Below, piece after piece: positions 4,081-43,148 of a stretch of 64,000 nt of DNA; position 1 is the stretch's first letter, and every line of letters starts with the position of its first letter. Origin of the DNA: Planctomycetota bacterium (lineage in GTDB: Bacteria > Planctomycetota > Phycisphaerae > Phycisphaerales > UBA1924); contig JAJRPN010000019.1 in NCBI GenBank assembly GCA_024280755.1, forward strand, positions 62,001-126,000, in the 5' to 3' direction. Under the pieces are notes generated by a model that did no database searches, had not been told where the DNA came from, and saw only the letters and a program-made list of their open reading frames with translations. The position numbers and the translations under genes are program-made.

Positions 4081-4082
4081 AG

Positions 4083-7754: not shown

Positions 7755-7839
7755 TTGATTTTTACGGCCCCAATCTGAGCAATGACACTCGCATCGTCGA
7801 TACGAATACGGTAGAATTAATTACGGAAGGCGAAAAATA

Positions 7840-9192
7840 ATGGCATCACTCACACGCGACAAAGGCGGCTCCAAGCGCATCCTGTTCATGTTTGCCAAAG
7901 GCGATCGGCGCACGATTCGGCTGGGCAAGATCAATGTTAAGTCAGCCGAGGCGTTCAAGGTTCGAGTGGAGCCGTTGATCGCAGCGATGCAGACAAATAC
8001 TTCGATTGCTCCAGAGACCACGCAATGGCTTCTAGGACTTCCAGACGACACATATGCCAAACTGGTGTTGGTCGGGCTAGCCGAGGCAAGAGAGCGAACA
8101 CAAACGCACACTCTGGGAATGATGCTTGATGAGTATTTCGCGACGATGAGTGTGAAGGAATCTACTCGTATTCGATATGCCCAGACCAAGCGGCTGCTCA
8201 TTGACTACTTCGGGAAGGATCGCCCGGTTGACTCAATCAGCACGCTTGATGGTGACAAATGGCGGGCGTGGTTGTGTGAGAAGGGATACGCCGAAGCCAA
8301 GATTGGGCGTGATGTTCGTGGGGCGCGGATGTACTTCAAGAAGGCTATGAAGTGGGGAATGATTCCTAGTAATCCGTTTGAGGATGTGAAAGCGGGGCGG
8401 ATAACGAACCGGACAAAAGCGTTCTTTGTGACTCCCGAAGCCACATTCAAGATCACCGAAGCGTGCCCTGATGCTGATTGGCGGTGCATTGTGGCACTGG
8501 CTCGGTTTGGTGGGTTGCGTTGCCCGTCGGAAGTGTTGGGGGTTCGCTGGGCAGATGTTGACTGGTCGAGCAATCGGTTCAGGGTGCGATCGCCAAAGAC
8601 TGAGCATCACCAAGGCAAGGCCGAGCGGATGGTGCCGCTGTTTCCTGAGCTTCGGACTGTGCTCATGCAGGCCTTTGAGTGTGCCCCCGATGGTGCTGAG
8701 TTTGTTGTGGGGCGGTATCGAGACATAGGGGCGAATCTGGGTACGCATATGCGTCGGATCATCGAACGGGCGGGTTTGCAAGCATGGCCTAAGCTGTTCA
8801 ATAACATGCGAGCAAGCCGAGCGACTGAGTTGGCACTTGAATATCCGGCTGCTCAATGCACTGCATGGATGGGGCATTCACAGGCCATTGCTGAGGCTCA
8901 TTACCACATGGTTCGGGATGAGGATTATGAGCGTGCAGCATCGACACCGATACCGATCAAGCAACCCGAAAAGAGTGGCGCAGAATCGAGCGCACTTGGG
9001 GCGCAAATGGCAGCGCAGCAGCAATCCGCAACAACCGGCAAAGAGAATCAAAATAGTGCGCAAACTAAAAAGGAACCAGCACTTATGCTGATTCCTTCTG
9101 GTCTTTGCAGTTCTTTGCAGAACCAATCAATGGGCATACGCGGACTTGAACCACGGACACCGGCATTTTCAATGCCGTGCTCTACCAACTGA
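7840..9192 (+). CDS. Tyrosine-type site-specific integrase
   Basis: A 450-aa integrase catalysing recombination between the element and tRNA-Phe. GGAAGG at 7825-7830 supports ATG 7840. A SAM-like core-binding domain spans about 90-185. Catalytic residues are R227 (GGLRCPSE), K253, R324 in NNMRASR (the box II histidine is Asn, as in other planctomycete integrases), H346 (WMGHSQ) and Y355 (HYHM). Residues 431-450 are encoded by the att core and the antisense strand of tRNA-Phe (GIRGLEPRTPAF...), so the end of the protein depends on what DNA lies beyond the core. In the circular form it would be extended by the ORF at 386-604. Confidence 0.93.
   Translation: MASLTRDKGGSKRILFMFAKGDRRTIRLGKINVKSAEAFKVRVEPLIAAMQTNTSIAPETTQWLLGLPDDTYAKLVLVGLAEARERTQTHTLGMMLDEYFATMSVKESTRIRYAQTKRLLIDYFGKDRPVDSISTLDGDKWRAWLCEKGYAEAKIGRDVRGARMYFKKAMKWGMIPSNPFEDVKAGRITNRTKAFFVTPEATFKITEACPDADWRCIVALARFGGLRCPSEVLGVRWADVDWSSNRFRVRSPKTEHHQGKAERMVPLFPELRTVLMQAFECAPDGAEFVVGRYRDIGANLGTHMRRIIERAGLQAWPKLFNNMRASRATELALEYPAAQCTAWMGHSQAIAEAHYHMVRDEDYERAASTPIPIKQPEKSGAESSALGAQMAAQQQSATTGKENQNSAQTKKEPALMLIPSGLCSSLQNQSMGIRGLEPRTPAFSMPCSTN
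8977..8997. repeat. 21-bp direct repeat shared with left-end ORF (right copy)
   Basis: This repeat is identical to 452-472 and encodes GAESSAL at integrase residues 380-386, just after the catalytic domain. The duplicated peptide on both sides of the att junction suggests that the integrase tail was duplicated when the att site became part of the coding sequence. Confidence 0.8.
9064..9097 (-). terminator. Terminator for tRNA-Phe embedded in the integrase gene
   Basis: Read on the minus strand, AAGGAATCAGC and GCTGGTTCCTT pair over 11 positions (one G-U) around a 6-nt loop and are followed by TTTTT. This lies about 33 nt beyond the 3' end of tRNA-Phe. On the plus strand the same stem has an A-C mismatch and no T tract, so it should not stop the integrase message. 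The element thus replaces the host terminator at 329-361 that its insertion moved away. Confidence 0.7.
9129..9151. repeat. att core, right copy (inside tRNA-Phe and the integrase frame)
   Basis: Identical to 385-407. It covers the 3' end of tRNA-Phe and codons 430-437 of the integrase. Confidence 0.92.
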
Positions 9193-9203
9193 GCTATATG
9201 CCC
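9131..9203 (-). tRNA. tRNA-Phe (GAA)
   Basis: A 73-nt cloverleaf on the minus strand: acceptor GGGCATA/TATGCCC, D-arm GCTC...GAGC, anticodon stem CGGCA/TGCCG with loop TTGAAAA (anticodon GAA), T-arm CGTGG/CCGCG with loop TTCAAGT, discriminator A. CCA is not encoded. It is the integration target of the element. Confidence 0.93.
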
Positions 9204-17270: not shown

Positions 17271-17485
17271 GGTGGTGATGGAGAAGAGCAATCGGCGGTG
17301 TATTTATGTTTTTGAGCGCAAGATAATCGGGAGAGATTGATCAAAATCAACCCTACTTTGGTTGTTCTCGGACGAAGAGTTGGGCAATTTTCCCGCCTTG
17401 TGATACAGTAGTGGTGGGGTAGTAGGTGTGCAATGTGCCGAGAAGAGGGGACTCTTTGAGGCGATAGAGTTTGAAAGCAGAATCG

Positions 17486-19438
17486 ATGGTTGTGAATCGA
17501 CTCATTCTCAAGGCCAAGTTGCTTGTGTGTGGTTGTGTATTCATGCTTGGATACGATGGCGTTGCGCAAGAGATGAGAGCTGAACCAGTCGCTCCCGTAG
17601 TAGAGCTTGCTCAAGTGACACCCCAACGAGATGGCTTTGGCTATTGGGTTGAAGATTTGGTGTATGAATATCCATTTGCGCACCCCGATTTGCCTGAGCT
17701 TGTAGTTCTTGACAACCTTGTTGTATTGTTGAGTCCCGTTGAAGACGGTTGGGTGTTGCCTGTCGAAGGCAAGGATATACAAGCGATCAGGCTTGGTGAG
17801 TTGGGATCGCACGGCGGCACAATGGTCTATGGCAGTGCGTTGGCGGTGATCAATCAGGCGATTCGGGACTATCTCGAAGCTGAGCATGGATTGATTGGGC
17901 ACTTGGTGACGCCCAATGCTTCGGAGATTGCGTATAGAACGACTCGTCAAGATTTACGAGAAAAGGGGGATGGGACACTCACTATTCTCGTCTGGCGTGC
18001 TGTTGTTGGTGAAGTGCGGACGGTGGCGCATGGGGATCGGCTTGCAGAAAAAGATGAGCTTGATGTTGAGGAGGACCCAAAGTCGAATATCAATCGCACA
18101 GAGCATCAACGGCTTCGAGATCGGTTGCGGGTGGAGCCTGGGACGCTGTTGACTCGTAAAGAGATTGACGAAGAGGTGCACCGACTCAACAGGCATCCAG
18201 GTCGGCGGGTTGATGTGGCGATTGCCCCAACAAGTGAGCCCGGCGAGGTGATTGTTGATTATTTGGTGACCGAGCCGAAGTCTTGGAATGCGTATGTGCA
18301 GACGAGTAATACGGGGACGCAGAGCACGAATGTTTGGCAGCAACGATTTGGATATATCAATCGCCAACTCACCGGGCGGGACGATGTGCTGTCGTTGGAT
18401 TACATCACGACGGAGTTCGATGCCACGCATGCGGTGCTCGGGTCGTATGTGTTTGACTTTGGGCCTCGGACAAGAATGAAGCTGTTTGGGCGGTGGAATG
18501 AATATACGGCGAAGGATGTCGGGCTTGGGTTTGAGAACTTTAAGGGCGATGGATATAGCTTGGGAGCCGAGGCAGCGATCAATGTCTGGCAAGATGGGCC
18601 CAAGTTTGTCGATGTTATTGTTGGGGCAAAGGTCGAGCGCATTCATGTTGAGAATCGGTTGTTTTTGATTGAAGGCGAGGATGATTTCTTGTTGCCCTAT
18701 GTTGGTGTGCGCTATCAGAAGAGCACGCCGGTGCATTCGGTGTATGGGCAGTTGATTATTGAAAGCAACTGGGGATCGATCGTTGGAACAAGCAAGGAGG
18801 AGGTACAAAGGCTCGGTCGATTTGGGGCTGATGACGATTTTACGATTCTGCGTGGGCAGCTCTCGCATTCGTTTTATCTCGAACCAATTTTCATGAAGGA
18901 ACGGTTTCGTGGCGGAAACGGGACTGATGGAATGACGCTTGCGCATGAAATGGTGCTGAGCTTGCGTGGGCAGTACAGTTTTCAGAGCCGATTGGTCCCT
19001 AACTTTGAGTTCGTCGCGGGCGGTTTTCATACGGTGCGTGGGTATGAGGAATCGGCAGCGGTTGGGGATGATGGGATTTTGGGTTCGGCAGAGTATCGGT
19101 TCCATCTGGGAAGATCGTTGCCTGCACGGGCGCAGACGGGGTCGTTGTTTGGCAAGCCGTTTCGGACAGCCCGGACAAGGCCTTATGGAAGTGCGGACTG
19201 GGATGTGATTTTTAAGGGGTTTGTCGATGTTGCTCGGCTGGGCGTGAATGATGCACCGTTCTTTGAGACTGCGGAGACACTTGTTGGCGCTGGTGTAGGG
19301 ATCGAGACACAGTTGAAGTCCAACATCACGCTTCGGCTTGATTATGGGATGGCGTTTACGAATATTGGCGAAGGGGCCGGGCGGACGACGAGCGTTGGGG
19401 ATACGCGATTGCATTTTTCGGCACAGTTTCTTTTCTAG
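17486..19438 (+). CDS. Two-partner secretion transporter TpsB (FhaC/ShlB-like)
   Basis: An Omp85-superfamily outer-membrane beta-barrel of about 650 aa that exports a partner exoprotein. A signal peptide (LLVCGCVFMLGYDGVAQ) is followed by POTRA-like segments (about 100-260; AIRLGELG, LRVEPGTLLTRKEI, RRVDVAIAP) and a barrel containing VRGY, the conserved motif of the loop that folds into the pore. It ends in aromatic LHFSAQFLF, as outer-membrane barrels do. ATG 17486 is preferred to the ATG at 17471 because of signal-peptide length. The next gene is its probable substrate, 44 bp downstream. Confidence 0.85.
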   Translation: MVVNRLILKAKLLVCGCVFMLGYDGVAQEMRAEPVAPVVELAQVTPQRDGFGYWVEDLVYEYPFAHPDLPELVVLDNLVVLLSPVEDGWVLPVEGKDIQAIRLGELGSHGGTMVYGSALAVINQAIRDYLEAEHGLIGHLVTPNASEIAYRTTRQDLREKGDGTLTILVWRAVVGEVRTVAHGDRLAEKDELDVEEDPKSNINRTEHQRLRDRLRVEPGTLLTRKEIDEEVHRLNRHPGRRVDVAIAPTSEPGEVIVDYLVTEPKSWNAYVQTSNTGTQSTNVWQQRFGYINRQLTGRDDVLSLDYITTEFDATHAVLGSYVFDFGPRTRMKLFGRWNEYTAKDVGLGFENFKGDGYSLGAEAAINVWQDGPKFVDVIVGAKVERIHVENRLFLIEGEDDFLLPYVGVRYQKSTPVHSVYGQLIIESNWGSIVGTSKEEVQRLGRFGADDDFTILRGQLSHSFYLEPIFMKERFRGGNGTDGMTLAHEMVLSLRGQYSFQSRLVPNFEFVAGGFHTVRGYEESAAVGDDGILGSAEYRFHLGRSLPARAQTGSLFGKPFRTARTRPYGSADWDVIFKGFVDVARLGVNDAPFFETAETLVGAGVGIETQLKSNITLRLDYGMAFTNIGEGAGRTTSVGDTRLHFSAQFLF

Positions 19439-19482
19439 AGGATCTACAGCACACGCGTTTGGAATCTATTTAGGAGTTTGAT

Positions 19483-22053
19483 ATGACCACTCAAGACACG
19501 AAATACATGATGAAGAGTCCTCGGAAGCTTTTATTGGCAGCACTACTTACCGCTGGGATTATGGGTGGAAATGTGTACGCTACTCCCGAAGGCGGCGAGG
19601 TGATCGAAGGCGATGCGGATATTGATTATGGTGATTGGACACGGGTGGTTACTGGTGAGATTACGATAATTCAATGGCTCTCGTTCCAGATCGCAGCTGG
19701 CGAGACGGTTGAGTTTATCATGCCGAGCGAGACATCGCGGGTGTTGAACTTGATCGCTTCTGGCGTGCCTACTGAAATCATGGGATCGTTGATAGGCAAC
19801 GGGCAGATTTTCTTAGTGAATCCATCTGGCGTAATTTTTGGTCAAGGCGCGGTGGTGAATGTCGGTGCTTTGTATGCCGCAGCCGGAAATCTCTCGAAGC
19901 ATGATTTTATGAACGGTGTGTATCGGTTTACTGATGCGCGTGGGGTTGTTGAAAATCGTGGGTTGTTGCAGGGTGATTTGATCGCTCTTGTTGGTGGGCG
20001 CGTTGCGAATCATGGGACGATCTCTGCGCCTGGTGGCACGGTGATTATGGCGGCTGGTGAGCAGGTGCTGATTGGTGAGCATCTTGGGCATGTGTTTGTG
20101 CAGCTTGAGCGCCCTACTGATTTGGCAAATGCAGATCAGTTGAGTGATCCTGGGTACGAGGGATTGGACCTTGCTGCGGGTGATGTGTTTTCGCTCGCTG
20201 CATGGAACACGGGGACGATTGAAGCGAGTCATGCGACTGTTGCTGTGAGCGCGGGGCATATGGCGATTGATAACTCGATTGTTGCGGGTGATATTACGCT
20301 CGATGCAATTGATGCTTCGCATATTGAACTGGGGGCGGATCTGACTTCGGATGGTGATGGAATTTTCATTCTTGGCGATCTTGTGCTTACCGACGATGTG
20401 CAGATGACGATGAGCGGGGATCACGGGGCGGTCGCTTTTAAGGGGGCTGTCGATTCTGCTGATGGCGCCGAGAATGATTTGCGGATTGATGCGGGCAATG
20501 GGCTGGTGACATTTCTGGATTCAGTTGGGCAGGGTTCCCGATTAGGTGTGCTTGATGTAACAGGTGGGAGAGTCCAGCTCTTTGATGATGTCGCAGTCAA
20601 TCAGGAAATGAACTTTTATGCTCCTGTCGAGATCATGCGTGATTCGACAACCTTTGATGTTGGGTTTGGCACGGCGTTGTTTGGGGATATTTTGTATTCG
20701 CATCGGGATGGTGCGAGTGATGTCGCGTTTGTGTATGATGGCCAGGCTTGGGTTGGCGAGGGTGAAGCGCGGACGCCGTTCCAGTTCCGCAACGGGATTG
20801 GGGTTGCTCCGACAGTATCGACTGGCCCTGCAAACGGGGCATTTGGCAATATTCTCTTTGGTGGCGATCTGAGTGATCCATCACGGGTGAGTGCGTTTAT
20901 GTTTGGGACTGGTGCGATGGCTGGGTTGGAGTTGATGAACTCGGGTTCGGTCGATCTTGGACATCATTTTCAAGTGATTGCTCGTGAATCGATTGTTATG
21001 GGGCAAGGGCAGAAGATGCTCTCGTTTGGATCGCTTTCATTGAGTGCCAAGGGTCGCGGATCGACATTGATCGAGATTGGTGATTTGAATGTGCTTGGTG
21101 ATTTGCGGGTGATCTCGCAAGGGCGTGAGGGCGGTTTTATTCGGTTAAATGGGCGATCAGCTGGCGAAGTCGATTTTACGGGGAATGAAGAGGATCGTGA
21201 TCTTGACGGGTTGTTCGACGAGGGGATGGAGTTGATTGCTTCTGGTTCGATCACGCTTGATGGCGAGCTGTTTTATGATGGCGATGTGACGCTCGGAGGG
21301 AGCAGCGTGTTGTTGCTCAATAACACCGGGGCAGGCGATGCAGGCAGTTTGGATATTGGGTTGTTCCCTGGGGGCGTGTCGTTGGATTTGTTCCGTGGGC
21401 AGCTCTCGGGAACGGGAGATTTGTTGTATCCGTATGACTTGACGCTGCCTTTGAGTATTGTTGATCCTATTCCATCTGCAAACTTGGCAACCTCGTTTGT
21501 CGATGAGGGGCCAGTGCAGCTTCGGACCGATGCTCCGTATCTTGCTGGGCGTCAGATCTTGGGTGAGTTGGGGTTAACTCCGATTGATCCATTGGATGTT
21601 CTCGATCGTCGAGGGCAGCAAGACGGTGTATATCTGTTTGATTCACTTGGAGCATCGAGGTTTGGCGTGACGATTGATCGATTGACGCGATCAAGCGTTC
21701 GCCGTCTTGGAAAGGCATATATTGGGTTGTTGGGCGAACGACTATCCAAGGATTTGCCTGAGCGAAGTCATGATGCAAGCGTGCGGCAAGCAATCGGTTG
21801 GCTTTGGATGCAGACCAATGGGCAAGAGATTGACGATGTCTTTGCCTATGCCCGTGATCATGATGGCAGCGGTTTGCATGTTTTACACCGTGTTCAAGCA
21901 GTGATTAATGCGATTGAGTTGCTTGAGTTGACACCCTTGGAAGTTGAACGGGCGAAAGCTGTGTTCTTTGAACGGATCACGCCAGCCGAGATGACGAGTG
22001 GGCTGATTCGTGGGTGGTTTGTGTCCAAGAGTGAGCAAGTCGTGAGTCGATGA
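19483..22053 (+). CDS. TpsA-type exoprotein with filamentous haemagglutinin N-terminal domain
   Basis: An 856-aa protein preceded by TAGGAG 7 nt before ATG 19483. A signal peptide (LLLAALLTAGIMGGNVYA) is followed by the TPS secretion domain (about 35-190), recognised by GQIFLVNPSGVIFGQGAVVN and by strand repeats typical of beta-helices. The middle is probably a beta-helix. The last 200 residues are helical and charged, unlike the fibrous part. It should be exported by the TpsB encoded just upstream. Short for the FhaB family and without an obvious toxin domain, so adhesion or surface attachment is more likely than toxicity. Confidence 0.85.
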   Translation: MTTQDTKYMMKSPRKLLLAALLTAGIMGGNVYATPEGGEVIEGDADIDYGDWTRVVTGEITIIQWLSFQIAAGETVEFIMPSETSRVLNLIASGVPTEIMGSLIGNGQIFLVNPSGVIFGQGAVVNVGALYAAAGNLSKHDFMNGVYRFTDARGVVENRGLLQGDLIALVGGRVANHGTISAPGGTVIMAAGEQVLIGEHLGHVFVQLERPTDLANADQLSDPGYEGLDLAAGDVFSLAAWNTGTIEASHATVAVSAGHMAIDNSIVAGDITLDAIDASHIELGADLTSDGDGIFILGDLVLTDDVQMTMSGDHGAVAFKGAVDSADGAENDLRIDAGNGLVTFLDSVGQGSRLGVLDVTGGRVQLFDDVAVNQEMNFYAPVEIMRDSTTFDVGFGTALFGDILYSHRDGASDVAFVYDGQAWVGEGEARTPFQFRNGIGVAPTVSTGPANGAFGNILFGGDLSDPSRVSAFMFGTGAMAGLELMNSGSVDLGHHFQVIARESIVMGQGQKMLSFGSLSLSAKGRGSTLIEIGDLNVLGDLRVISQGREGGFIRLNGRSAGEVDFTGNEEDRDLDGLFDEGMELIASGSITLDGELFYDGDVTLGGSSVLLLNNTGAGDAGSLDIGLFPGGVSLDLFRGQLSGTGDLLYPYDLTLPLSIVDPIPSANLATSFVDEGPVQLRTDAPYLAGRQILGELGLTPIDPLDVLDRRGQQDGVYLFDSLGASRFGVTIDRLTRSSVRRLGKAYIGLLGERLSKDLPERSHDASVRQAIGWLWMQTNGQEIDDVFAYARDHDGSGLHVLHRVQAVINAIELLELTPLEVERAKAVFFERITPAEMTSGLIRGWFVSKSEQVVSR

Positions 22054-28303: not shown

Positions 28304-29764
28304 ATGGCCAATATTCTGCTCATCGAAGATGATGAAACTTTACGGTTTACGATTTCGCGTGCGCTGCGAAAAGCAGAGCATGATGTGGAATCTGTTGAAT
28401 CGATCTCGCAGGCTCGCCAGTGTATTCAATCCGCTCCCTTTGATCTTGTTCTGACAGATGTTCATCTGGTTGGTGATGAGTCGGGGATTGATTTTATTGA
28501 GGAGTTACGAGCGGGTGGTTTTCGTGGCGGGGTTATTGTGATGACCGCGTTTGCCAATGTGGATGATGCTGTTCGTGCGATGAAGCTGGGCGCTGATGAC
28601 TATTTATCCAAACCGGTTCGGCTTGAGGAACTGGGTTTGATTACCGAACGGCTGCTCGAGCAGTATCGCCAATCAAAGCAGCTTCGGTTGTATCAACGGA
28701 TTCACAAGGCTGGGCAGAAAGAGAAACGGCCAATTGGTCGATCTGATATATGGATGAGAACGCTTCAGCTCGCAGAACGGTTAGCTCAGATTCCAGTTGC
28801 GAATCGAACGGTTGATCATGGGAGTTCGAATGGTGGGGCGGTGACTACTGTGCTCATTTCTGGTGAAACAGGTTCGGGAAAGGGCGTGGTTGCTCGGCAT
28901 ATCCATGCTTCTGGCAAGGACCCTGATCAGCCGTTTGTGCATGTGAACTGTACGGCGTTGCCTGGATCGTTGATCGAGAGCGAGCTCTTTGGGCATGAGA
29001 AGGGTGCGTTTACTGATGCAAAGGAGGCTCGGGAAGGTCTCTTTGAGATGGCTGATGGCGGGACAATATTCTTGGATGAGATCGGCGATTTGCCTATTGA
29101 GTTTCAAGCCAAGTTGCTGACAGTTTTGGAAGAAGGAAAGATTCGGCGGGTTGGATCGGGTAAAGAACAAACGATTCGAGTTCGTGTTCTTGCCGCGACA
29201 AACCGGGATTTGGAGAAGAAGGTTCGTGAAGGAACTTTTCGCGAAGATTTATTGTTTCGGATTAATGCGTTCACCCTGACACTGCCGAGTTTGCGTGGGC
29301 GGGGTGATGACGCTGTTGAAATTGCGGGGCATTTACTTGCCAAACTTCGCAAGGAGTATGGATTGTCTCAGATTGATTTCAGTGTGGAGTCAATCGAGCG
29401 TATTCGGGAACACAAGTGGCCGGGGAATGTGCGTGAGTTGTTTAATATGACACAGCGGGCAGCGATGCTGTGCGATGGCAAAGAGATTATCGTTTCTGAC
29501 CTTGGACTTGATCAGCGGGGAAGTGCATCAGATGCTGCTGAGCAATGTACAGCACAGGCACCGGGCGAACTTCGATTGAATTTTGAGGATGGGCCTCATT
29601 CTGCCGAGGAGATTGAAAAGATATTGATGATTCAAGCATTGGAGTTTACGAGGGGGAATGTTTCGAAGGCTGCTCGGTTGATTGGGATGCAGCGATCGAG
29701 TTTTCGGTATCGCATTGAGCGGTATGACATCGATGAGATTGTGCAGGAAATAGTTGGACGATGA
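28304..29764 (+). CDS. Sigma-54-dependent response regulator (NtrC family)
   Basis: A 486-aa regulator. The receiver domain has phospho-acceptor D52 (LVLTDVHL) and K103 (YLSKPVR). The AAA+ domain has Walker A GETGSGKG (187-194), [11 protein letters not shown] (253-263) and the sigma-54 contact loop written GAFTDA (234-239) in place of GAFTGA. The C-terminal Fis-type HTH ([18 protein letters not shown]) binds DNA. Its partner kinase is 36 bp upstream. The dockerin gene downstream overlaps its stop codon and so belongs to the same operon. Confidence 0.93.
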
Positions 29765-31218
29765 AGAGCTTTGTGTTCAATCTTGGTTTGGTGTGTGCTT
29801 GTTGCCCGTTGATGGCATATGAGCCTGGGGTTTGGATTGATCCAGAAGGCGATGCGGTTATTCGGCGGACAGATGTTGGCAATGATGCTGCTTTGCAGGC
29901 AGGCTTTGAGCCAATTGATTTGCTTGAGATTCGACTCGATGGTTGGATGCCTGATTTACCGACTTTGAACGCGTATGTCGGGAAGACGGTTGTTGGTGAT
30001 GCTGATTTGATGCGGATGCGATTGGTGTTTGATGGGCTGGTATCGCCGCCGGGACCTTTGGCTATTGACGGGACAAGCTATCAGCCTGCACAGTTTGGTG
30101 ATCGTCCGGCGTATGGATATATCGAGTTGGATGTCGATCATGAGAGTGACACGGGCGGCGAGTTTATGCCTTTGGCTCGGAATCGGTATCTTGCCAATGT
30201 TGGTCGGTTCTCAATGAATCCTTCCGGCTCGATATCGAGCCGAATGGTTCGCGATGCAGGTGATGTGGATTCAGATTTTAACACTGAGCCGACCTTTGAA
30301 CGAAGCGGTGGCGAGTTTACACTCATCTTGTGCGGGTGCTTTGAGCCGACAATTGTTTATCAAGATGGAAACGAAGATTCGATCTTTGATCCTGGCGAGT
30401 TGTGGGTTGTCAATGGTCGGTTCTTTGAACGCTTCGAGGCCTATCAAGATGAGAGTGCGTTCTTTGGTGGATCAGACTTTGGCTTGTTTGACCCTGAGGT
30501 TGACCTCTTGTACACACATGACTCTGATGCTGATCAAACAACGATTACCCTTGTATTCCCGATCACACAGCTCGGGGCATCAATTCTTGATGGGACGAGT
30601 GAGCAAGGGATTGATTTTAGTTTGTCGAACCATACATCAATCGAAGAGGCGTTAGATGACTTGATCGATGGAGTGCCGTTTACCAATGGTGATCTTCGAC
30701 AGTTAATTGAGGGCTGGGATGGTCAAGAAGTTTCTAATTTTCGTGATCCAACGGAATGGATCGTCAGGGCGTTGGTGGGAACTGCTCCGATAGTGTTTGA
30801 TCCGAGTGCATTGTTTGTTTGGACAGATACGGGATTTGGGGAAGTGTTCGGCGACCTCAATGATGATGAGATTTCGGATATATTGGATGTCGAAATAATT
30901 GAAGAGGCTATCGCCGATCGCGATGGTACATCAAAGGACGCTGACGGAACGGTCAACGGTCAAGTTGCGATATCGAACTTTGGATTCTCCTTTGATATCA
31001 ATGATCTCAATGGCGATGGGGTAATTTCATTTGCAGATACTTCATTGATTCCATGCCTTGCGGATCTGAACGGTGATGGGCTATTGAACTTCTTTGATGT
31101 GTCTGCGTTTTTAAGTTTTTACGGTGCAAACAACCTCGCCGCTGATTTGAACAACGACGGGGTTCTGAATTTTTTCGATATTTCTCGATTCTTGTTGCTG
31201 TTTGCAGCCGGGTGTTAG
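29761..31218 (+). CDS. GC-type dockerin-tailed secreted protein
   Basis: A 485-aa protein with ATG overlapping the TGA of the regulator gene (ATGA), so the two are translationally coupled. An N-terminal signal peptide (FVFNLGLVCACCPLMA) leads a large acidic extracellular domain of unknown function. The tail has two repeats, ADLNGDGLLNFFDVSAFL and ADLNNDGVLNFFDISRFL, and ends AAGC. Coupling to an NtrC-type regulator is unusual for a structural exoprotein and suggests it is a target or accessory of the same signalling pathway. Confidence 0.85.
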   Translation: MKSFVFNLGLVCACCPLMAYEPGVWIDPEGDAVIRRTDVGNDAALQAGFEPIDLLEIRLDGWMPDLPTLNAYVGKTVVGDADLMRMRLVFDGLVSPPGPLAIDGTSYQPAQFGDRPAYGYIELDVDHESDTGGEFMPLARNRYLANVGRFSMNPSGSISSRMVRDAGDVDSDFNTEPTFERSGGEFTLILCGCFEPTIVYQDGNEDSIFDPGELWVVNGRFFERFEAYQDESAFFGGSDFGLFDPEVDLLYTHDSDADQTTITLVFPITQLGASILDGTSEQGIDFSLSNHTSIEEALDDLIDGVPFTNGDLRQLIEGWDGQEVSNFRDPTEWIVRALVGTAPIVFDPSALFVWTDTGFGEVFGDLNDDEISDILDVEIIEEAIADRDGTSKDADGTVNGQVAISNFGFSFDINDLNGDGVISFADTSLIPCLADLNGDGLLNFFDVSAFLSFYGANNLAADLNNDGVLNFFDISRFLLLFAAGC

Positions 31219-31598: not shown

Positions 31599-31874
31599 TC
31601 ATTCAGGCGCGGATTCTTCGAAGCCGAAGCCTTTGACTGGGAATGCGCCTTGCTTGGCGACGAGGGTGGCCAGTTTGTTGAATGCTTCTTCACGCGACTC
31701 GGTTTCACCCTCTTTGGAAGCTGTTTTGCTCAATCGCTTGCCATTGATTTCGCAAGTTGCGATTGCTTTGAAGAGTTGTTTTTTGGCAGGGCGATATGGC
31801 TGACCTGGAGGTGTTGAGACGGATTGTGGGCGTTCAACAATGCGTACACCGATTTTGATTGCTTGCTTGCTCAT
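31599..31874 (-). CDS. 91-aa protein, last gene of the WXG/FtsK operon
   Basis: A small soluble protein with a basic N-terminal half (KIGVRIVERP, YRPAKKQLFKAI) and an acidic, helical C-terminal half (ESREEAFNKLATLVAKQG). No known family is recognised. It begins 39 nt after the FtsK-like gene. Its size is near that of EsaB/YukD proteins of Firmicutes type VII systems, but no ubiquitin-like pattern is visible, so homology is not claimed. Confidence 0.6.
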   Translation of the reverse strand: MSKQAIKIGVRIVERPQSVSTPPGQPYRPAKKQLFKAIATCEINGKRLSKTASKEGETESREEAFNKLATLVAKQGAFPVKGFGFEESAPE

Positions 31875-31913
31875 TGGTTGCCTTTGGCTTCTCTTGATCG
31901 AGACACAGTTTAC

Positions 31914-34900
31914 TCAGTCATCATTTTGGCGTATTGTAGCGAGATGTTGGGCAGCGGCCTTGGCAGTGCTTGCATTGGGGAGGTCAATTGGGATGAACTT
32001 CTGGAGCGTTCCTGCGACATCGTCTGCGAGAATCGCCCGGTTGGCTCCGAGGGTTGACGCGATTGAGGAATCAACGAGGGCTGCGGAATCTGAGGCACTC
32101 ATTTGCATCAAGGCTCGAAGCCCAAACTCGCGAACGGTTGATCGTTCCATGGCCCGTTCAACATTCGTCAGGGTGTCGCACCATGCGAGTGTCCATACGC
32201 CGACGGCTGGGCCTTCACGGAGAATATTGGCGAGAGATTTATCGGAGCTTTGTGCTTCGCTAGAGTCATCCCTCGAGAATGAGTAGTCGTCACTCTTGCG
32301 TAGCGAGCGTAAGCGGTGAATCCCGGCAAGGACAAGGATGATGGGATCGCCGGCGTGTTCGCCCCGCTCGATGATTGTTTGGTTGATCTCGGAAACGATT
32401 TCGTCTGCCTTGTGATGCGTGACGAGTTGTGCATTGATATCGGATGCGGTGATGGCGGCTGAAATGCGTCCATACATCGCGTCATCATCGGGTGTTGGAT
32501 CGATCACGAATACGCGTGTCTTGGGCGTTGCTCCGGCGGTGATGGTTGATGCCATGAGCATGCCTAAGGCGGGTTCTGGCTGCGGGCCGATGATGAGCAA
32601 GTTTGCGCCAGATCGTTTTTGGAGCGAGACAGATGTTGGTGGTGCGATGGCAACCGCATCACCAAGGAGTATGCGTGGTGATTTACTTATTGGGAATGCT
32701 TGGCTTAAGGCAGCTGCGGACTTGTCGAACTGGGCAGGAAGATTGCCTTCGAATACAACTGTTGGAGGGTACTCCTTCAACTGTTTCGGAAGCTGTGAAA
32801 GACAAGAATCTCTTTGGGCGTCGGGGAGCCACGCGGTTTGGAATGGGCTGTTGCCTTCGACGAGTCCGCCGGCGTTGTTGTAGATCGCTTCGCCTGGTCG
32901 TTCGAGTAGTCTTGCAGCGTTATTGTCTTCGCCGAGGATGAGATAGGAATCTGCTTCTGAGCATTGCAATGCGATACGCACGCCAATTTGCCCGAGTGTT
33001 GAACGGGCGAGGGAATACGCTCCTGCGAGTGTTTGTGATCCAAGGACAACATGCACACCAAAGGCTCGGCCTTGACGGACGAGTCGATCGAGCAGGAGTG
33101 TTGCTTCTGAAGAAACCTCGTCGTCCTCGGTGAAAAACTCCTGGAACTCATCGATCAAGAGCAAGACGCGTGGGAGTGATTCTTGGGGAGCCAACGAACG
33201 GGCGGCTGCGAGATCTTGAGCGCCGAGTTTGCGGAAGAGCTCGCCTCGGGTTGTGAGTTCATCATCAAGACGCTTCAGAACCGAGAGTCCAAACTCACGA
33301 TCGGATTCGATGGCGACCGCTCGGATATGGGGGGCCGTGCCCTTTGTGTATGCTTTGAACTCAACTCCCTTTTTAAAGTCAATAAGATAGAGTTCGAGCT
33401 CGTCGGGTGAATGCCAAAGGGCGGCTGCGGTGATGATCACATGGAGCAATGTCGATTTACCAGAACCCGTTCGCCCTGCGATCAATGCGTGCTGACGCGT
33501 ACCCATGCCAAGGCGGAGTTCTTGATTTTTTTGTGCCCCTGATCGCCCGATTGGGATTACAAGCTCGTGATCGCACGAGCGAGTCCACTGCGAACTTTCT
33601 TCTGGAGCCAAGCGATCGAATGGGACCTCGACTCGGCCGGCTTGTGTTCCAGCTTGTGCAACACGCTCAAGAACATCTGAAACGATTGAGTCTTCTGGTT
33701 CGACTATGGGTGAGATGACAGTTTCCTCAAATCGATCATCAATGATCTGAGGCACACCTTGCTCAAACTGCATCGTAAGCGTTGTCGAGTTGAGGGTTTC
33801 AGCGGTGAGTGGGGGGGGGAACGATTCAGCGATGTCGGTAGAAAGGATGGCGTATACGCCGCACCGAGGTCCTGTTTCCAAAATGCTTTTTAATCGAGCA
33901 GCACCATTTTCTGTCAGAGCTGCGGGGAGATCTGCGATCACTACAAACCGATAGGGCTCAGAGATTTCTCCTGCGGCTCGGTTGTAATCTTCGATTGTTT
34001 CGTAATCCGCTCTGAGGTATTTTTGAATCACCGTCTGCATGTGCTCGGTTATATCAGCGAGTTGGCGTTCGATTTTCTGTGGATCTGACCAGATACGATT
34101 GCCTACGGGCGAAGGTTCTTGATCTGACAGCGGCATAAATCCTGCGAATGATTGTCCGATCTCAACCGGATCTGCCATCATGAAACGGACCTTGCCAGCA
34201 GGGAATGATGCGAGGATGCGAAGCATGACCGATCGCATAGTCGAGAATGCACTCGATCGGCTTTGTGCATCGTGGCGAATCAGCAAAGAATGTGAACCCG
34301 GAAGCGAATACACAATCGGAGTTTGTATCTGACCTGGTAGTGCGAGTGTACTTTGAAGATCTGGATCAAGTTGATCAACTCTTGATTGAATGTTCAAGCA
34401 CGCATTCGCAAGAGTGATGACCTGAGGAACAGCCTGCGGCTGAGGCATAGCGGCGGTTGTGGCCCATGATGGATTTGAGTATTTTTCTTGATCCTGAGTT
34501 ATTTGTATTCTTTGTTTTGCGATAGAAACAGCTTCGATAAGTTGGTGTCGAGCCTGTGCACCAAGCGTATCGTACTTTTCTTGAGCATCCCGAGTCAACT
34601 TTGTACAAAGGCTGTTGGCTGATGCGATTTCGGCTTCATGCTTTTGGTGTGCTGCTGATATCAACCTCGTTTCGAGAACCTTGAGTGCTTCAAGGTCTTT
34701 GTTTCGGCGGGTAGAAAGCTCGTCAGAAATTTCCTCATAATTCTCATGTGCTTGACGCACCACAGAACCAGTTTTTCGCTCGCTGTTTTGTGCGATCACC
34801 TGATATGCCTTCGTTGCAAAGCCAATCTCTCGCTTGTTCTTGGCTTGTATCTCAGCGGTACGAGAATTGTGCTGGATGGAATAAATCGCTGAGAGCGATT

Positions 34901-35609
34901 CAATTTCAGACTTTGCTTGCAAAATCAGGCAGTAGATTTCTTTGCCAAGCTCAACCGATTTCTTTCGGCTACGGAAGAGTTTGAGGAGCGGGTTGTCTGC
35001 GGCATTTTCGATAGCCAACTCAATCTCATCCATCAAGTTATTCAAACTCTGAGCATTTGGTTGCTCCTGCGACACTGGCGGATCAATTGATTCGCTCATG
35101 AGCATTGTAGTGACCGTCTGGCCGAGTTCTTGAGCAAGGCGTGACTGTGACTCTTCTAAACGCTCAGATAAGTTCTTGATTGTTTTTTCATTGAGTAGGC
35201 ATTCAGATTGAGCTTTATGGAGTGAAGATTCGAGTTGAGCGTCCTCAAGCCATACTGTTTCTTCGTACACTTTTTTGGCTTTTTTCAGATGGTTATTGTG
35301 TATGCCCTTGGCTTCTCCCTCTTCTTTGGATCGTTCAGCAGCAGCCTTCTTGAGTAATGCAGATTGTTTTTCATCTATTTCAAAGCGTGTTTTCTTGGCT
35401 TTCTGCTCGGTAATAGCCAGTGTTTGCTCGAGTTCCTCGTTCGCTACATTGACTTTGTAGTCGCAGCTTTGAGAAGCAGATGAAGCGACTTTTTCAAAGC
35501 TTGCTTTCGCAGATGCGATTGTGTGGAGATAGTGATCAAGTTCAACTCTTATCGCAGCAAAGCCATCGGCCTGGGTGTCGAAGCTTGGCGAATAGTTTTC
35601 TGTACTCAT
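31914..35609 (-). CDS. Coiled-coil FtsK/EccC-like triple-ATPase protein
   Basis: A 1,231-aa protein. Residues about 20-410 are a long, charged coiled coil with no membrane helix, in place of the N-terminal membrane segments of EccC/EssC. Three RecA-like FtsK/SpoIIIE domains follow. The first (about 445-640) has no Walker A. The second has GRTGSGKST (712-719) and Walker B RVLLLIDEFQEF (D820, E821). The third (about 970-1215) keeps the fold pattern but has IIGPQPEPALG where Walker A should be. Three tandem ATPase domains resemble type VII secretion ATPases, and WXG100-like genes sit upstream in the same operon. A DNA translocase role is possible but less supported. Confidence 0.85.
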   Translation of the reverse strand: MSTENYSPSFDTQADGFAAIRVELDHYLHTIASAKASFEKVASSASQSCDYKVNVANEELEQTLAITEQKAKKTRFEIDEKQSALLKKAAAERSKEEGEAKGIHNNHLKKAKKVYEETVWLEDAQLESSLHKAQSECLLNEKTIKNLSERLEESQSRLAQELGQTVTTMLMSESIDPPVSQEQPNAQSLNNLMDEIELAIENAADNPLLKLFRSRKKSVELGKEIYCLILQAKSEIESLSAIYSIQHNSRTAEIQAKNKREIGFATKAYQVIAQNSERKTGSVVRQAHENYEEISDELSTRRNKDLEALKVLETRLISAAHQKHEAEIASANSLCTKLTRDAQEKYDTLGAQARHQLIEAVSIAKQRIQITQDQEKYSNPSWATTAAMPQPQAVPQVITLANACLNIQSRVDQLDPDLQSTLALPGQIQTPIVYSLPGSHSLLIRHDAQSRSSAFSTMRSVMLRILASFPAGKVRFMMADPVEIGQSFAGFMPLSDQEPSPVGNRIWSDPQKIERQLADITEHMQTVIQKYLRADYETIEDYNRAAGEISEPYRFVVIADLPAALTENGAARLKSILETGPRCGVYAILSTDIAESFPPPLTAETLNSTTLTMQFEQGVPQIIDDRFEETVISPIVEPEDSIVSDVLERVAQAGTQAGRVEVPFDRLAPEESSQWTRSCDHELVIPIGRSGAQKNQELRLGMGTRQHALIAGRTGSGKSTLLHVIITAAALWHSPDELELYLIDFKKGVEFKAYTKGTAPHIRAVAIESDREFGLSVLKRLDDELTTRGELFRKLGAQDLAAARSLAPQESLPRVLLLIDEFQEFFTEDDEVSSEATLLLDRLVRQGRAFGVHVVLGSQTLAGAYSLARSTLGQIGVRIALQCSEADSYLILGEDNNAARLLERPGEAIYNNAGGLVEGNSPFQTAWLPDAQRDSCLSQLPKQLKEYPPTVVFEGNLPAQFDKSAAALSQAFPISKSPRILLGDAVAIAPPTSVSLQKRSGANLLIIGPQPEPALGMLMASTITAGATPKTRVFVIDPTPDDDAMYGRISAAITASDINAQLVTHHKADEIVSEINQTIIERGEHAGDPIILVLAGIHRLRSLRKSDDYSFSRDDSSEAQSSDKSLANILREGPAVGVWTLAWCDTLTNVERAMERSTVREFGLRALMQMSASDSAALVDSSIASTLGANRAILADDVAGTLQKFIPIDLPNASTAKAAAQHLATIRQNDD

Positions 35610-35627
35610 TTGGTTACTCGCATAGAG

Positions 35628-35840
35628 TTATTCGCACGCACGCTTGGCCTCATCACATACAGATTGTAACCGATCCATCGCGTCACCGGCTTGGCGGGCG
35701 GCTGTTTCGATCGGCGAAATAAACTCTTCTTCAAACTGAGCTGCGGTTGCATCATTCCAGGCACTATGACACCTGCGCCAAGCATGGTGCAAGACACCTA
35801 CGGCATCTGCAAGTATTCCTTTTCCAGCGGCTTGGCTCAT
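35628..35840 (-). CDS. Small WXG100-like helical protein (70 aa)
   Basis: The start overlaps the stop of the preceding gene (ATGA), and the FtsK-like gene begins 18 nt after its end. The pattern HHAWRRCHSAWNDATAAQFEEEF, split by a Trp-Asn-Asp turn, then a second amphipathic helix (AARQAGDAMDRLQSVCDEA), resembles WXG100 hairpins, although the turn is W-N-D and not W-x-G. It is shorter than typical ESAT-6 proteins. Probably a secreted substrate or structural partner of the ATPase. Confidence 0.65.
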   Translation of the reverse strand: MSQAAGKGILADAVGVLHHAWRRCHSAWNDATAAQFEEEFISPIETAARQAGDAMDRLQSVCDEAKRACE

Positions 35841-36388
35841 GAAGACTCCTCAGATGCTTGATCAGAATCAGGCGTGCTCGGGATTGTATCTATCTTTGGT
35901 TTCGTTTCGCTCGGTGCTGCCAGTGATGTATAGTTATCGAGTGCATTGGCGAGTGAGTCGAGCCGTGATATAGCCGTGGTGAGACTGATGCGGGCAAGGG
36001 TTGCCATTGGCTGAATAGACGCTCGATAACGGACTGTTTCTTTTTCAAGCATCCTGATCCAGTACCGTGTTCGTTCATACTTCTCCTCGGCCTCGCGCAC
36101 TTGTCGCTTGGCGTGCTCGAATGCCTTTCTCGCATCGACTGAAGGTCGAGGATTATCTCCTGTGGTTTGTTGCACAAGCTTTGTATTTGCTCGAACAGCA
36201 TGTTCAGAACGAATACGGATCTGGCGTTTCCAATGAGGTAGTTTTTCGCGTTGCAACATCCCGAGCACTTTCGACGCTTCGCTCTCGGTGCTCCGTAGTG
36301 CAACTTGTGAGTTTTCGCCAAAGCGGATAAGTGCGGGGCGCAAATCTCTGAGCGACTCAATATTGGTGACATGTGCAGAAGAGCCCAT
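35837..36388 (-). CDS. Coiled-coil protein of the WXG/FtsK operon (183 aa)
   Basis: A soluble, highly charged helical protein (FEHAKRQVREAEEKYERTRY, with heptad-like spacing) and a disordered acidic C-terminus rich in Ser, Pro and Asp. No signal peptide. It starts 2 nt after the WXG100-like gene and overlaps the next start. No known family is recognised; the gene order suggests a chaperone-like or structural partner of the small WXG-like proteins. This is inference from context. Confidence 0.65.
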   Translation of the reverse strand: MGSSAHVTNIESLRDLRPALIRFGENSQVALRSTESEASKVLGMLQREKLPHWKRQIRIRSEHAVRANTKLVQQTTGDNPRPSVDARKAFEHAKRQVREAEEKYERTRYWIRMLEKETVRYRASIQPMATLARISLTTAISRLDSLANALDNYTSLAAPSETKPKIDTIPSTPDSDQASEESS

Positions 36389-36390
36389 GT

Positions 36391-36663
36391 TTATCGCTGC
36401 CTCAGATATTCTTCGAGGCGATCTGCCTTACGAAGCAAAAACGGAATCTGCTCATCAATTGCTTCTTGAAACTTGGCGAGTTGACGCATGGTTTGTTCAA
36501 ACTCGTTCTGGAACTTTGCGTGTTCTTGATCGCGCCAAGATTGGCTTAGATTGGCCATCTGCCCGTTCATCTGGGAGAGCTGTTGATCCATGCTGGATCC
36601 AAAACGCTTGAGTAACTGAGCGAATCGGCGTATTTCTTCAGGATCTGCAACTGCTTTGGCCAT
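36391..36663 (-). CDS. WXG100-family-like protein (90 aa), first gene of the operon
   Basis: A two-helix hairpin protein of typical ESAT-6 length. The first helix (PEEIRRFAQLLKRFGSSMDQ) leads to LSQSWRDQEHAKFQNEFEQ, where the Trp turn (W-R-D in place of W-x-G) and following F-x3-F spacing match the superfamily, and a second helix ends LRKADRLEEYLRQR. In type VII systems such proteins are exported as dimers and dock on the ATPase. Here it heads a tightly packed minus-strand operon with the FtsK-like ATPase. Confidence 0.78.
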   Translation of the reverse strand: MAKAVADPEEIRRFAQLLKRFGSSMDQQLSQMNGQMANLSQSWRDQEHAKFQNEFEQTMRQLAKFQEAIDEQIPFLLRKADRLEEYLRQR

Positions 36664-36754: not shown

Positions 36755-36827
36755 TAGCCCCGCCCGGATTCGAACCGGGGACCGAGCGATTATGAGTCGC
36801 GAGCTCTAACCGCTGAGCTACGGGGCC
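36755..36827 (-). tRNA. tRNA-Ile2 (CAT, lysidine-modified)
   Basis: A 73-nt cloverleaf: acceptor GGCCCCG/CGGGGCT (first pair G-U), D-arm GCTC/GAGC, anticodon arm GCGACTCATAATCGC, T-arm CCCGG/CCGGG with loop TTCGAAT, discriminator A. The anticodon arm and acceptor resemble E. coli tRNA-Ile2, whose CAT anticodon is changed to lysidine by TilS to read AUA. That is why Ile is preferred over Met. Confidence 0.82.
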
Positions 36828-41753: not shown

Positions 41754-43148
41754 TTATGGACATCCAGCAGCGAAGAGGCCGAGGAATGCCGAGATATCGA
41801 AGAAGTTGAGCACGCCATCACCATTGATGTCTGCGGTCAGGTCGCCAGCACTGAAGAAGCCGAGGAATGCCGAGATATCAAAGAAGTTGAGCACGCCGTC
41901 GAGGTTCATGTCAGCAACACATATAGGTGTGCCGCCTGGGCCATACAGACCGAACTCGAATGATGAGTAAGGTGTGTAGTTTACACCAGCACATGCGAAT
42001 CCGCCGAAGAAGTAACCACCTTCGTAGATGATGTCACCAGCAAGGTTTGGTGGGAAGTACTGAGCGAAACGGTCTTCTGAACCGAAGCCAGCACCGACAG
42101 CCATTGTGTCGATTTCCCATGTCCATGTTACACCCATGTCAGGTGTAGTGGCTGTACCTTCTGGAGCACCGAAGCCTACACCGATGAGACGATGTGAGTC
42201 AGCGATGTCGCCGTCGAGTGCGTCGATGACGCCGTCGCCGTTGCTATCACCAGTACCTGGCTGATAGAAACGAAGACCCCATGACCAGTCGAAGAGGCCG
42301 TCACCATCGATATCGGCATCTGGGAGGCCGTCGAAGTTACGGTCAACGAATGGGAAGCCAGTCATTGGATCGATTGATGAGTCAGCGATGGAGAAGCCGT
42401 CGCCGATGCCGTCGGAGTTGATATCCACATCGTTGTTACCGAATGCCGCACCCTGGAGGTCGCCATCGGAATCGCCGATTTCGAACATGAGGTTACTGGT
42501 CAATGATGTCGCAACAAGATCAAGATCGAGTGTGTAACCAGCAAAGGTGTTTGCTGGATCGTCTGGATCGTTGGTGCCCGAAATATCACCTGGAAGATCT
42601 GTGACGAGGATCGAGATGATTGGGAGGCGTGATGAACGATCCAACTCGCGGCCGTTGTCAGCATCAAAGATGGTCCACTCGCCTGAGAGACCAACAACGC
42701 CGTCGCCGATACCATCGGTATCTGCATCAACATCAATGTGATCTGTTACCCAGCTGAAGTGGAGACAGTCAACGAGTGTATCGATTGCGATATCACCGTA
42801 ATCAAGGTTGGTGATCTGAGTCGACAATGAAGTCGCTGGACCACCAAGTGATGTATCGGAGTTATCGTCAATACCGAAGAAGTAGCTTGTTGTGTAGCCT
42901 TCTTCTGAACATGGGTTGCCATCAACGGCAGCCCAAAGAGCAACTCTGTCTGCTGCTTGTGCTGCTGCTGTTTGGCTATCACCGATCAGGGTGATAACTT
43001 TTTCGCCTGATGCAACATTGTAGTAAATGTGTGCAACTTGAACGACCTTGCCGTTGTTTGGTGACAGGGTAGTTGGCGTGTTGGAAGCGGCCGCGGTGCT
43101 GGCGATACCAGCTGCCAGGGCGACGGTCAATGCACTCTTCGCTTTCAT
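41754..43148 (-). CDS. GC-type dockerin-tailed secreted protein
   Basis: A 464-aa protein with a signal peptide (ALTVALAAGIASTAAAS), an acidic extracellular domain with several calcium-loop-like motifs (DINSDGIGDG, DIDGDGLFDW, DSNGDGVIDALDG), the segment GGYFFGGFACAGVNYTPY shared with the gene at 2-298, and two dockerin repeats ending AAGCP. AAGAGGAGC gives a strong ribosome binding site and a strong terminator follows, suggesting high expression. Probably an abundant surface or extracellular protein; its ligand is unknown. Confidence 0.88.
   Translation of the reverse strand: MKAKSALTVALAAGIASTAAASNTPTTLSPNNGKVVQVAHIYYNVASGEKVITLIGDSQTAAAQAADRVALWAAVDGNPCSEEGYTTSYFFGIDDNSDTSLGGPATSLSTQITNLDYGDIAIDTLVDCLHFSWVTDHIDVDADTDGIGDGVVGLSGEWTIFDADNGRELDRSSRLPIISILVTDLPGDISGTNDPDDPANTFAGYTLDLDLVATSLTSNLMFEIGDSDGDLQGAAFGNNDVDINSDGIGDGFSIADSSIDPMTGFPFVDRNFDGLPDADIDGDGLFDWSWGLRFYQPGTGDSNGDGVIDALDGDIADSHRLIGVGFGAPEGTATTPDMGVTWTWEIDTMAVGAGFGSEDRFAQYFPPNLAGDIIYEGGYFFGGFACAGVNYTPYSSFEFGLYGPGGTPICVADMNLDGVLNFFDISAFLGFFSAGDLTADINGDGVLNFFDISAFLGLFAAGCP

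What the first reader, a model, noticed from the sequence alone, without database searches (positions are those of the whole stretch)
31599..36663. Minimal type VII-like operon: WXG100-like proteins with a soluble coiled-coil FtsK/EccC ATPase
Five tightly spaced minus-strand genes (gaps of 2, -4, 18 and 39 nt) encode a WXG100-like protein, a coiled-coil protein, a second small WXG-like protein, a triple-ATPase FtsK/EccC-like protein and a 91-aa protein. Unlike EccC or EssC, the ATPase has a long coiled coil and no membrane helix, and no EccB/D/E, EssA/B or mycosin gene is near. That points to either a reduced secretion device docking to an unknown pore, or a non-secretory function of the WXG/FtsK pair in a diderm bacterium.
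Basis: partly seen in the sequence, partly recalled or inferred. Interest (0 to 1): 0.85.

Follow-up and report, generated by a model that had tools for sequence, protein, structure and literature searches.

The report
Soluble minimal type VII-like WXG module
This planctomycete carries a compact four-gene relative of the type VII protein-secretion machine that is widespread in its phylum; in this species and its nearest kin the motor protein has lost the membrane anchor that nearly all its relatives have, which makes it a natural test of whether such machines must sit in a membrane to work.

Summary
The genes are real and correctly placed. The first small protein is a WXG100 protein, the big one an EccC/EssC-like FtsK ATPase. 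Four genes (wxgA, coiled-coil cc2, wxgB, atp) form a conserved, single-copy module in about half of the sampled genomes of this order, and also occur in other Planctomycetota, Verrucomicrobiota and Lentisphaerota. The ATPase, wxgA and cc2 are present or absent together in 151 genomes, even where the genes lie at two or three separate places. The 91-aa gene is not part of it. No YukD, EssB or EccB was found in this genome. The small proteins carry W-x-D, not W-x-G, and their closest solved relative is Helicobacter pylori HP0062. The kind is published (HP0062/HP0066; CoCoNuT- and TerY-P-linked WXG/FtsK operons). The planctomycete module, its ancestral anchor, the clade-specific loss and an Imm33-like domain on some cc2 proteins appear to be new. 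Secretion is inferred, not shown.

The parts
36391..36663 (-). wxgA: WXG100-family small helical-hairpin protein, 90 aa
   Evidence: PF06013 E 1.6e-11, above the curated cut-off; best solved relative H. pylori HP0062, E 2.7e-12; W43, D45, E47, F51, K79, A80, Y86, L87 invariant or nearly so in 95 homologues
36529..36537 (-). hairpin-bend motif W43-R44-D45 (WxD in place of WxG)
   Evidence: W and D invariant in 95/95 homologues; HP0062 also has WRD (PMC3397514)
35837..36388 (-). cc2: long helical hairpin (residues 10-75 and 84-156) with a disordered tail, 183 aa
   Evidence: AF2 pLDDT 88.7; Y153 98/98 and W110 94/98 conserved; single copy, in the same genomes as atp and wxgA
35628..35840 (-). 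wxgB: second small WXG-like protein, 70 aa, overlaps cc2 by 4 nt
   Evidence: W28 and D30 in 99/99 and C69 in 96/99 homologues; profile cross-matches wxgA at about 1e-3 to 1e-5
31914..35609 (-). atp: EccC/EssC-like FtsK ATPase with N-terminal coiled coil (about 1-390) and three ATPase-like domains (about 395-620, 660-935, 960-1215), 1231 aa
   Evidence: ortholog in 72 of 151 genomes of the order
33453..33476 (-). Walker A of the middle ATPase domain (GRTGSGKS, residues 712-719)
   Evidence: invariant G712, T714, G715, S716, G717, K718, S719 in A1
33144..33167 (-). Walker B of the middle ATPase domain (residues 815-822)
   Evidence: D820, E821 and F822 invariant in A1
34964..34967 (-). site of the missing transmembrane hairpin, after residue 215 (LFRSR), where orthologues have about 60 residues with two hydrophobic helices
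   Evidence: alignment of 15 orthologues; 106 of 111 full-length orthologues have at least one hydrophobic helix there, 94 have two or more
36755..36827 (-). tRNA-Met(cat) gene 91 nt upstream of wxgA; DNA similarity to genus-mate G155 stops at 36752, its 3' end
31599..31874 (-). p91: 91-aa ORF, judged NOT part of the module
   Evidence: no homologue in any locus fetched by then, including sister loci L072 and L032; no family match

Best explanation
It is a four-gene T7SS-like module of the HP0062/HP0066 (W-x-D) branch of WXG100/EssC systems. Two short helical-hairpin proteins (wxgA, wxgB) and a long hairpin protein (cc2) are the dedicated cargo or adaptor set of one hexameric FtsK/EccC-type ATPase whose middle domain hydrolyses ATP and whose flanking domains are degenerate. 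In most planctomycetes the ATPase is held in the inner membrane by a transmembrane hairpin at the EssC position, so there it most likely moves the WXG/cc2 complex into or across that membrane. In this species and its two sisters the hairpin has been cut out of an otherwise intact, selected protein, so here the motor most likely acts on the same partners from the cytosol: remodelling or unfolding the WXG/cc2 complex, or docking through its coiled coil to an unidentified membrane partner. Shown here: gene content, co-occurrence, fold class, motifs, missing anchor, purifying selection. Inferred: that the proteins bind each other, hexamer and ATPase activity, export in relatives, cytosolic action here.
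For: Four-gene order in most of 121 loci. Presence/absence of atp (72), wxgA (73) and cc2 (72) in 151 genomes agrees; atp against wxgA 71 both, 3 discordant, 77 neither, Fisher p about 1e-39. Co-occurrence holds where genes are dispersed, for example G077 on three contigs and G035 at 2.33, 2.49 and 2.83 Mb; wxgA-cc2-wxgB stay together in 6 of 9 genomes with atp elsewhere. No other gene recurs in more than 7 of 40 loci within about 8 kb. ATPase nearest to EccC/EssC. Hydrophobic helices in 106/111 orthologues, none in window, L032, L072. Purifying selection: wxgA dN/dS 0.06 window-L072, atp 0.10 window-L032, with saturated dS.
Against: No secretion, binding or ATPase data exist for any member of this branch that I could find. 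cc2 carries no recognisable effector domain here. Helices were called from Kyte-Doolittle hydropathy, not from a trained predictor or a structure with the membrane part. Dispersed co-occurrence is also what a purely cytosolic complex would show. The soluble CoCoNuT-linked versions hint that cytosolic action may be common in the wider family.
Confidence: 0.55

Rival explanations
1. A true secretion device also in this species: the soluble ATPase docks on an inner-membrane pore made by an unlinked gene, and wxgA/cc2 are exported to periplasm or outside.
For: ATPase and WXG genes kept under constraint without the anchor; some distant plasmid versions (L154 Rhodococcus, L155 Deinococcus) encode a separate small protein with a C-terminal hydrophobic helix next to the ATPase, so the anchor can be a separate gene.
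Against: No membrane gene recurs near the operon in any lineage sampled, and only the four genes are shared between the window and its two anchorless sisters within the stretches compared.
Confidence: 0.2
2. An intracellular conflict or defence device, as proposed for CoCoNuT- and TerY-P-linked relatives: the ATPase handles a coiled-coil effector or senses invasion, and no export takes place.
For: Relatives sit beside VWA, PP2C, kinase and Card1-like CARF genes in Caballeronia, and beside a WHH-nuclease/SUKH pair in Helicobacter with the nuclease in the cc2 slot; patchy distribution and a variable tRNA-adjacent site; PMC11090510.
Against: No effector domain on cc2 here, no defence or toxin genes recurring beside the planctomycete operons; the anchor in most planctomycete orthologues argues for a membrane role; no PADLOC match for wxgA and only FtsK/HerA-domain matches for atp.
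Confidence: 0.2
3. A DNA translocase (FtsK/HerA type) whose small partners are unrelated accessory proteins.
For: The middle domain alone superposes on FtsK motor domains with Z 25-27 at 2.8-3.2 A.
Against: Sequence models, phmmer and Foldseek E-values favour EccC/EssC; three tandem ATPase-like domains align over the whole EccC cytoplasmic part (4nh0, 703 residues); tight co-occurrence with WXG proteins; no FtsK gamma domain among Pfam matches.
Confidence: 0.05

Closest known systems
Helicobacter pylori HP0062 / HP0066 WXG100 cluster (called a minimal type VII set in PMC4978471)
   Same: wxgA's best solved relative is HP0062 (3fx7, E 2.7e-12) with the same WRD bend; FtsK ATPase encoded nearby; in the related plasmid locus L156 the order is wxgA, coiled-coil protein, immunity gene, small protein, ATPase
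   Different: The Helicobacter plasmid relative carries a WHH nuclease on its coiled-coil protein plus a SUKH immunity gene; the planctomycete cc2 has neither, and most planctomycete ATPases have membrane-helix-like segments
WXG100/EssC-like operons attached to Type III-A CoCoNuT and TerY-P systems (PMC11090510, citing Anantharaman 2012)
   Same: N-terminal coiled coil, three ATPase domains with only the middle one active, two WXG proteins, a coiled-coil protein in the same operon, stand-alone copies in other genomes
   Different: Those ATPases are described as lacking membrane helices and the coiled-coil protein carries a restriction-endonuclease-like domain; here no VWA, kinase or CoCoNuT genes adjoin, and 106/111 orthologues have hydrophobic helices
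T7SSb (EssC, EsxA, YukD/EsaB, EssA, EssB, EsaA)
   Same: EssC-type ATPase and a WXG100 protein; membrane hairpin before the ATPase domains in most orthologues
   Different: No YukD and no EssB in this genome; coiled coil instead of FHA domains; anchor missing here; W-x-D motif
T7SSa / ESX (EccC with EccB, D, E, MycP)
   Same: EccC-like ATPase (TIGR03924 E 9e-33; TcrEccC is the top Foldseek hit)
   Different: No EccB in the genome; all matches far below the equivalog cut-offs

Membership tests
Type VII secretion system (T7SSa/T7SSb) | EccC/EssC-type FtsK ATPase with tandem ATPase domains | tested here: met
   only the middle domain keeps Walker motifs
Type VII secretion system (T7SSa/T7SSb) | WXG100-family protein | tested here: met
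   wxgA above the PF06013 cut-off
Type VII secretion system (T7SSa/T7SSb) | W-x-G motif in the hairpin bend | tested here: not met
   W-x-D in 95/95 wxgA and 99/99 wxgB homologues
Type VII secretion system (T7SSa/T7SSb) | membrane anchor on the ATPase | tested here: not met
   absent in the window protein; present in 106 of 111 full-length orthologues
Type VII secretion system (T7SSa/T7SSb) | YukD/EccD ubiquitin-like component | tested here: not met
   PF08817 no match in the genome, 94% complete
Type VII secretion system (T7SSa/T7SSb) | EssB (T7SSb) or EccB (T7SSa) | tested here: not met
   PF10140 only a 12-bit match under the cut-off; PF05108 none
Type VII secretion system (T7SSa/T7SSb) | EccE, mycosin, EssA, EsaA | not tested
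   not searched in the genome; searches were kept for distribution. No extra gene recurs near the operon
Type VII secretion system (T7SSa/T7SSb) | secretion of the WXG protein | not testable with these tools
   needs culture work
HP0062/HP0066- and CoCoNuT-type WXG/FtsK operons | HP0062-like WxD protein encoded with an FtsK-type ATPase | tested here: met
HP0062/HP0066- and CoCoNuT-type WXG/FtsK operons | coiled-coil N terminus and a single active central ATPase domain | tested here: met
   composition and alignment; description in PMC11090510
HP0062/HP0066- and CoCoNuT-type WXG/FtsK operons | nuclease domain on the coiled-coil protein | tested here: not met
   cc2 has no such domain; in 24 of 98 homologues the tail is replaced by a long C-terminal extension, Imm33-like in 19 of 23 scanned
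HP0062/HP0066- and CoCoNuT-type WXG/FtsK operons | flanking VWA / TerY-P genes (CoCoNuT-linked subset) | tested here: not met
   none seen among the neighbouring window ORFs, none recurring at planctomycete loci
FtsK/SpoIIIE DNA translocase | gamma (KOPS-reading) domain | tested here: not met
   no such Pfam match

The most novel reading that the evidence does not exclude
Planctomycetes have their own, phylum-wide, membrane-anchored T7SS-like system reduced to four genes, in which the ATPase alone supplies the inner-membrane part; and one clade has turned it into a soluble WXG-handling machine by deleting the transmembrane hairpin, a natural separation of the ATPase/WXG function from membrane translocation.
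Probability: 0.35. Interest if true: 0.8.

Novelty: new variant of a known kind. Interest (0 to 1): 0.57.

Why it matters
Type VII systems are studied almost only in Gram-positive bacteria and mycobacteria, where a whole set of membrane proteins is needed. A four-gene version kept as a unit through diderm planctomycetes, with a membrane-anchored majority and a soluble minority that keeps every other part, lets one ask which steps need the membrane. It also ties together H. pylori HP0062/HP0066, the CoCoNuT/TerY-P WXG operons and EccC/EssC in one family, and corrects the impression that the coiled-coil EssC branch is always soluble.

Tried and rejected
p91 as a fifth component: rejected, no homologue in the fetched loci or sisters. 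A further conserved gene near the operon: none in more than 7 of 40 loci. cc2 as a multi-copy polymorphic effector family: rejected for this order, one copy per genome (one genome shows two partial matches). Fold identity of cc2: Foldseek and VIA-align give only generic long-helix matches, uninformative. Viral origin: one weak hit among 2.9 million viral contigs; phage records give partial matches at 25.8-33.2% identity. A direct-repeat attachment site for the tRNA end: none found, so integration at the tRNA is suggested, not shown. Numbering of the three ATPase domains against EccC (DUF-D1-D2 or D1-D2-D3): unresolved, sequence and structure comparisons disagree. The weak fvmYukDl_N match of cc2 (E 0.0074) was judged below significance. 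Laying the whole genome in the script box was not available.
Full report
What is there. The window lies in a 3.0-Mb draft genome (94% complete) of a planctomycete of the Phycisphaerales kind: its closest named orthologue is from a Phycisphaerales bacterium. The five ORFs exist at the stated coordinates with the stated gaps. wxgA is a WXG100 protein by Pfam's own cut-off and the only WXG100 match in the genome. wxgB is too divergent for that model, but its family cross-matches wxgA. The 1231-aa protein has a coiled-coil-like N terminus and three ATPase-like domains; by sequence and by Foldseek E-value its relatives are EccC and EssC rather than FtsK DNA pumps. The middle domain alone superposes on FtsK motors equally well or better, as expected within one superfamily. 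Walker A and B residues are invariant in the middle domain; the flanking domains show no recognisable Walker A.

The unit is four genes. In 40 orthologous loci from the order, wxgA, cc2, wxgB and atp lie together in the same order in nearly all, and no other gene recurs in more than 7 loci within about 8 kb. The 91-aa ORF has no homologue in any locus fetched by then, including the two sister loci. A scan of 84,980 species genomes returned 470 confirmed relatives; the 80 best are in Planctomycetota (two without a phylum name) plus two Verrucomicrobiota and one Lentisphaerota, mostly with the same four-gene order where the contig is long enough. In 392 genomes spread over the phylum, 62 have the ATPase.

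Functional linkage. In the same 151 genomes of the order, atp is found in 72, wxgA in 73 and cc2 in 72. For atp and wxgA, 71 genomes have both, 77 neither and 3 are discordant, two of these with an obvious excuse (G138 at a contig edge; G139 only 78% complete); Fisher p is about 1e-39. Related genomes are not independent, so the p-value overstates the case, but the pattern holds across 49 genera and where the genes are scattered: G077 has the three on three contigs, and G035 has them at 2.33, 2.49 and 2.83 Mb of one contig. In six of nine genomes with a distant atp, wxgA-cc2-wxgB stay together. Nearly all genomes have a single copy of each.

Motifs. wxgA has an invariant W43-x-D45-x-E47 with F51, K79, A80, Y86 and L87 in 95 homologues, ending in YLxQR. 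wxgB has W28-x-D30 in 99 of 99 and C69 in 96 of 99. cc2 has W110 in 94 and Y153 in 98 of 98. The bend is therefore W-x-D, not W-x-G. The best solved relative of wxgA is H. pylori HP0062 (3fx7, E 2.7e-12), ahead of every Gram-positive EsxA/EsxB, and HP0062 has WRD in the bend (PMC3397514). PMC4978471 names this H. pylori gene cluster a WXG100 secretion system.

cc2. AlphaFold2 gives two long helices (10-75, 84-156; mean pLDDT 88.7) and a disordered tail, which looks like a stretched version of the WXG hairpin. In 24 of 98 homologues the tail is replaced by a C-terminal extension; 19 of 23 scanned match Pfam's Imm33-like domain. In distant plasmid-borne relatives the same slot holds a coiled-coil protein with a WHH nuclease followed by a SUKH immunity gene (Helicobacter), a larger coiled-coil protein with no Pfam match that fits the published coiled-coil/restriction-endonuclease fusion (Caballeronia; PMC11090510), or a cc2-like protein with another C-terminal part (Rhodococcus, E 4.5e-6 for the cc2 part). 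Homology of the Helicobacter and Caballeronia proteins to cc2 itself is by position and coiled-coil type, not by a significant sequence match. This slot thus seems to carry the exchangeable business end of the module in other phyla, while in planctomycetes it is a single conserved protein without a recognisable toxin.

The missing anchor. Of 111 orthologues with a complete N terminus, 93 have two non-overlapping hydrophobic 19-residue segments upstream of the first ATPase-like domain (median starts 229 and 259), 12 have one, one has more, and five have none: the window protein, L032, L072, L148 and L067 (117 of all 121 sequences are distinct). L067 keeps two weaker segments (1.47 and 1.39). 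In alignment the window, L032 and L072 lack the same stretch of about 60 residues right after the conserved LFRG position; the sharing excludes a sequencing error. The window and L072 are sisters in the ATPase tree; L032 was not in that tree, but is 54-56% identical to both. Two transmembrane helices before the ATPase domains is the layout of EccC/EssC (established knowledge), so the simplest reading is an ancestral anchor lost in this clade. The published description of the CoCoNuT-linked members as lacking membrane helices (PMC11090510) does not extend to the planctomycete members. After the loss the proteins remain constrained: wxgA is 82% identical between window and L072 with dN/dS 0.06, atp has 0.10 against L032, with synonymous sites saturated.

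Genomic setting. The operon starts 91 nt after a tRNA-Met(cat) gene. Genus-mates G155 and G152 have the same trpA-tRNA arrangement but other genes behind it; DNA similarity to G155 stops at 36752, the tRNA's 3' end. All four genus-mates examined keep map-trpA and lack the operon there. It is an accessory unit at a variable site; no flanking repeat of the tRNA end was found in the window. Nine other loci lie within 100 nt of a tRNA-Val.

What it does. Best-supported: a T7SS-like ATPase with a dedicated set of three hairpin proteins. Membrane-anchored relatives most likely move that set into or across the inner membrane; this clade most likely handles the same partners without an anchor. No EccB, YukD or EssB occurs in the genome. 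By features it fails as a canonical T7SS member (motif, anchor here, partners) but works like one in its two core parts, and it belongs to the HP0062/HP0066-type branch already sketched in the literature. I recall, without having been able to check it, an earlier survey by Sutcliffe (2011) reporting WXG100 genes outside Gram-positives. Export, binding and ATPase activity are inferred.

Limits. Membrane helices rest on hydropathy alone; the tree is a quick FastTree; many loci are draft bins; cross-phylum sampling is biased by the pattern scan; EccE, mycosin, EssA and EsaA were not searched; no open paper on planctomycete type VII systems was found in the library, but most subscription papers are not in it.

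Noticed in passing
window 686-9203: Probable integrated element: type IIG restriction-modification enzyme (PADLOC E 1e-257), an AAA/primase-like protein and what reads as a tyrosine recombinase (7840-9192) whose gene end overlaps tRNA-Phe (9131-9203).
   Followed up: partly
window 17471-22053: What reads as a two-partner secretion pair (outer-membrane POTRA/barrel-type protein and filamentous-haemagglutinin-like protein); both have relatives in genus-mate G152 (L167).
   Followed up: no
window 29761-31218 and 41754-43148: Two probably secreted proteins share a C-terminal DLNxDGxLNFFDISxFL...AGC repeat motif; a related tail occurs in genus-mate locus L166.
   Followed up: no
L156 7728-12130 (Helicobacter plasmid): The cc2 slot holds a coiled-coil protein with a WHH nuclease domain followed by a SUKH immunity gene, between wxgA-like and ATPase genes: a toxin-immunity pair inside a WXG/FtsK module.
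   Followed up: partly
L154 12496-13107 (Rhodococcus) and L155 9384-9812 (Deinococcus): Small coiled-coil-like proteins with a C-terminal hydrophobic helix (KD 3.2 and 2.7) are encoded next to ATPases without such helices, as if the membrane anchor were a separate gene.
   Followed up: partly
L040, L081, L082, L093, L096, L126, L127, L136, L138: In nine planctomycete loci the operon lies 13-97 nt from a tRNA-Val gene, in what look like several lineages; shared ancestry or repeated insertion is unresolved.
   Followed up: no
L078, L033, L103, L143 and others: An Imm33-like domain fused to the C terminus of cc2 (19 of 23 long forms), without an obvious cognate toxin nearby.
   Followed up: partly
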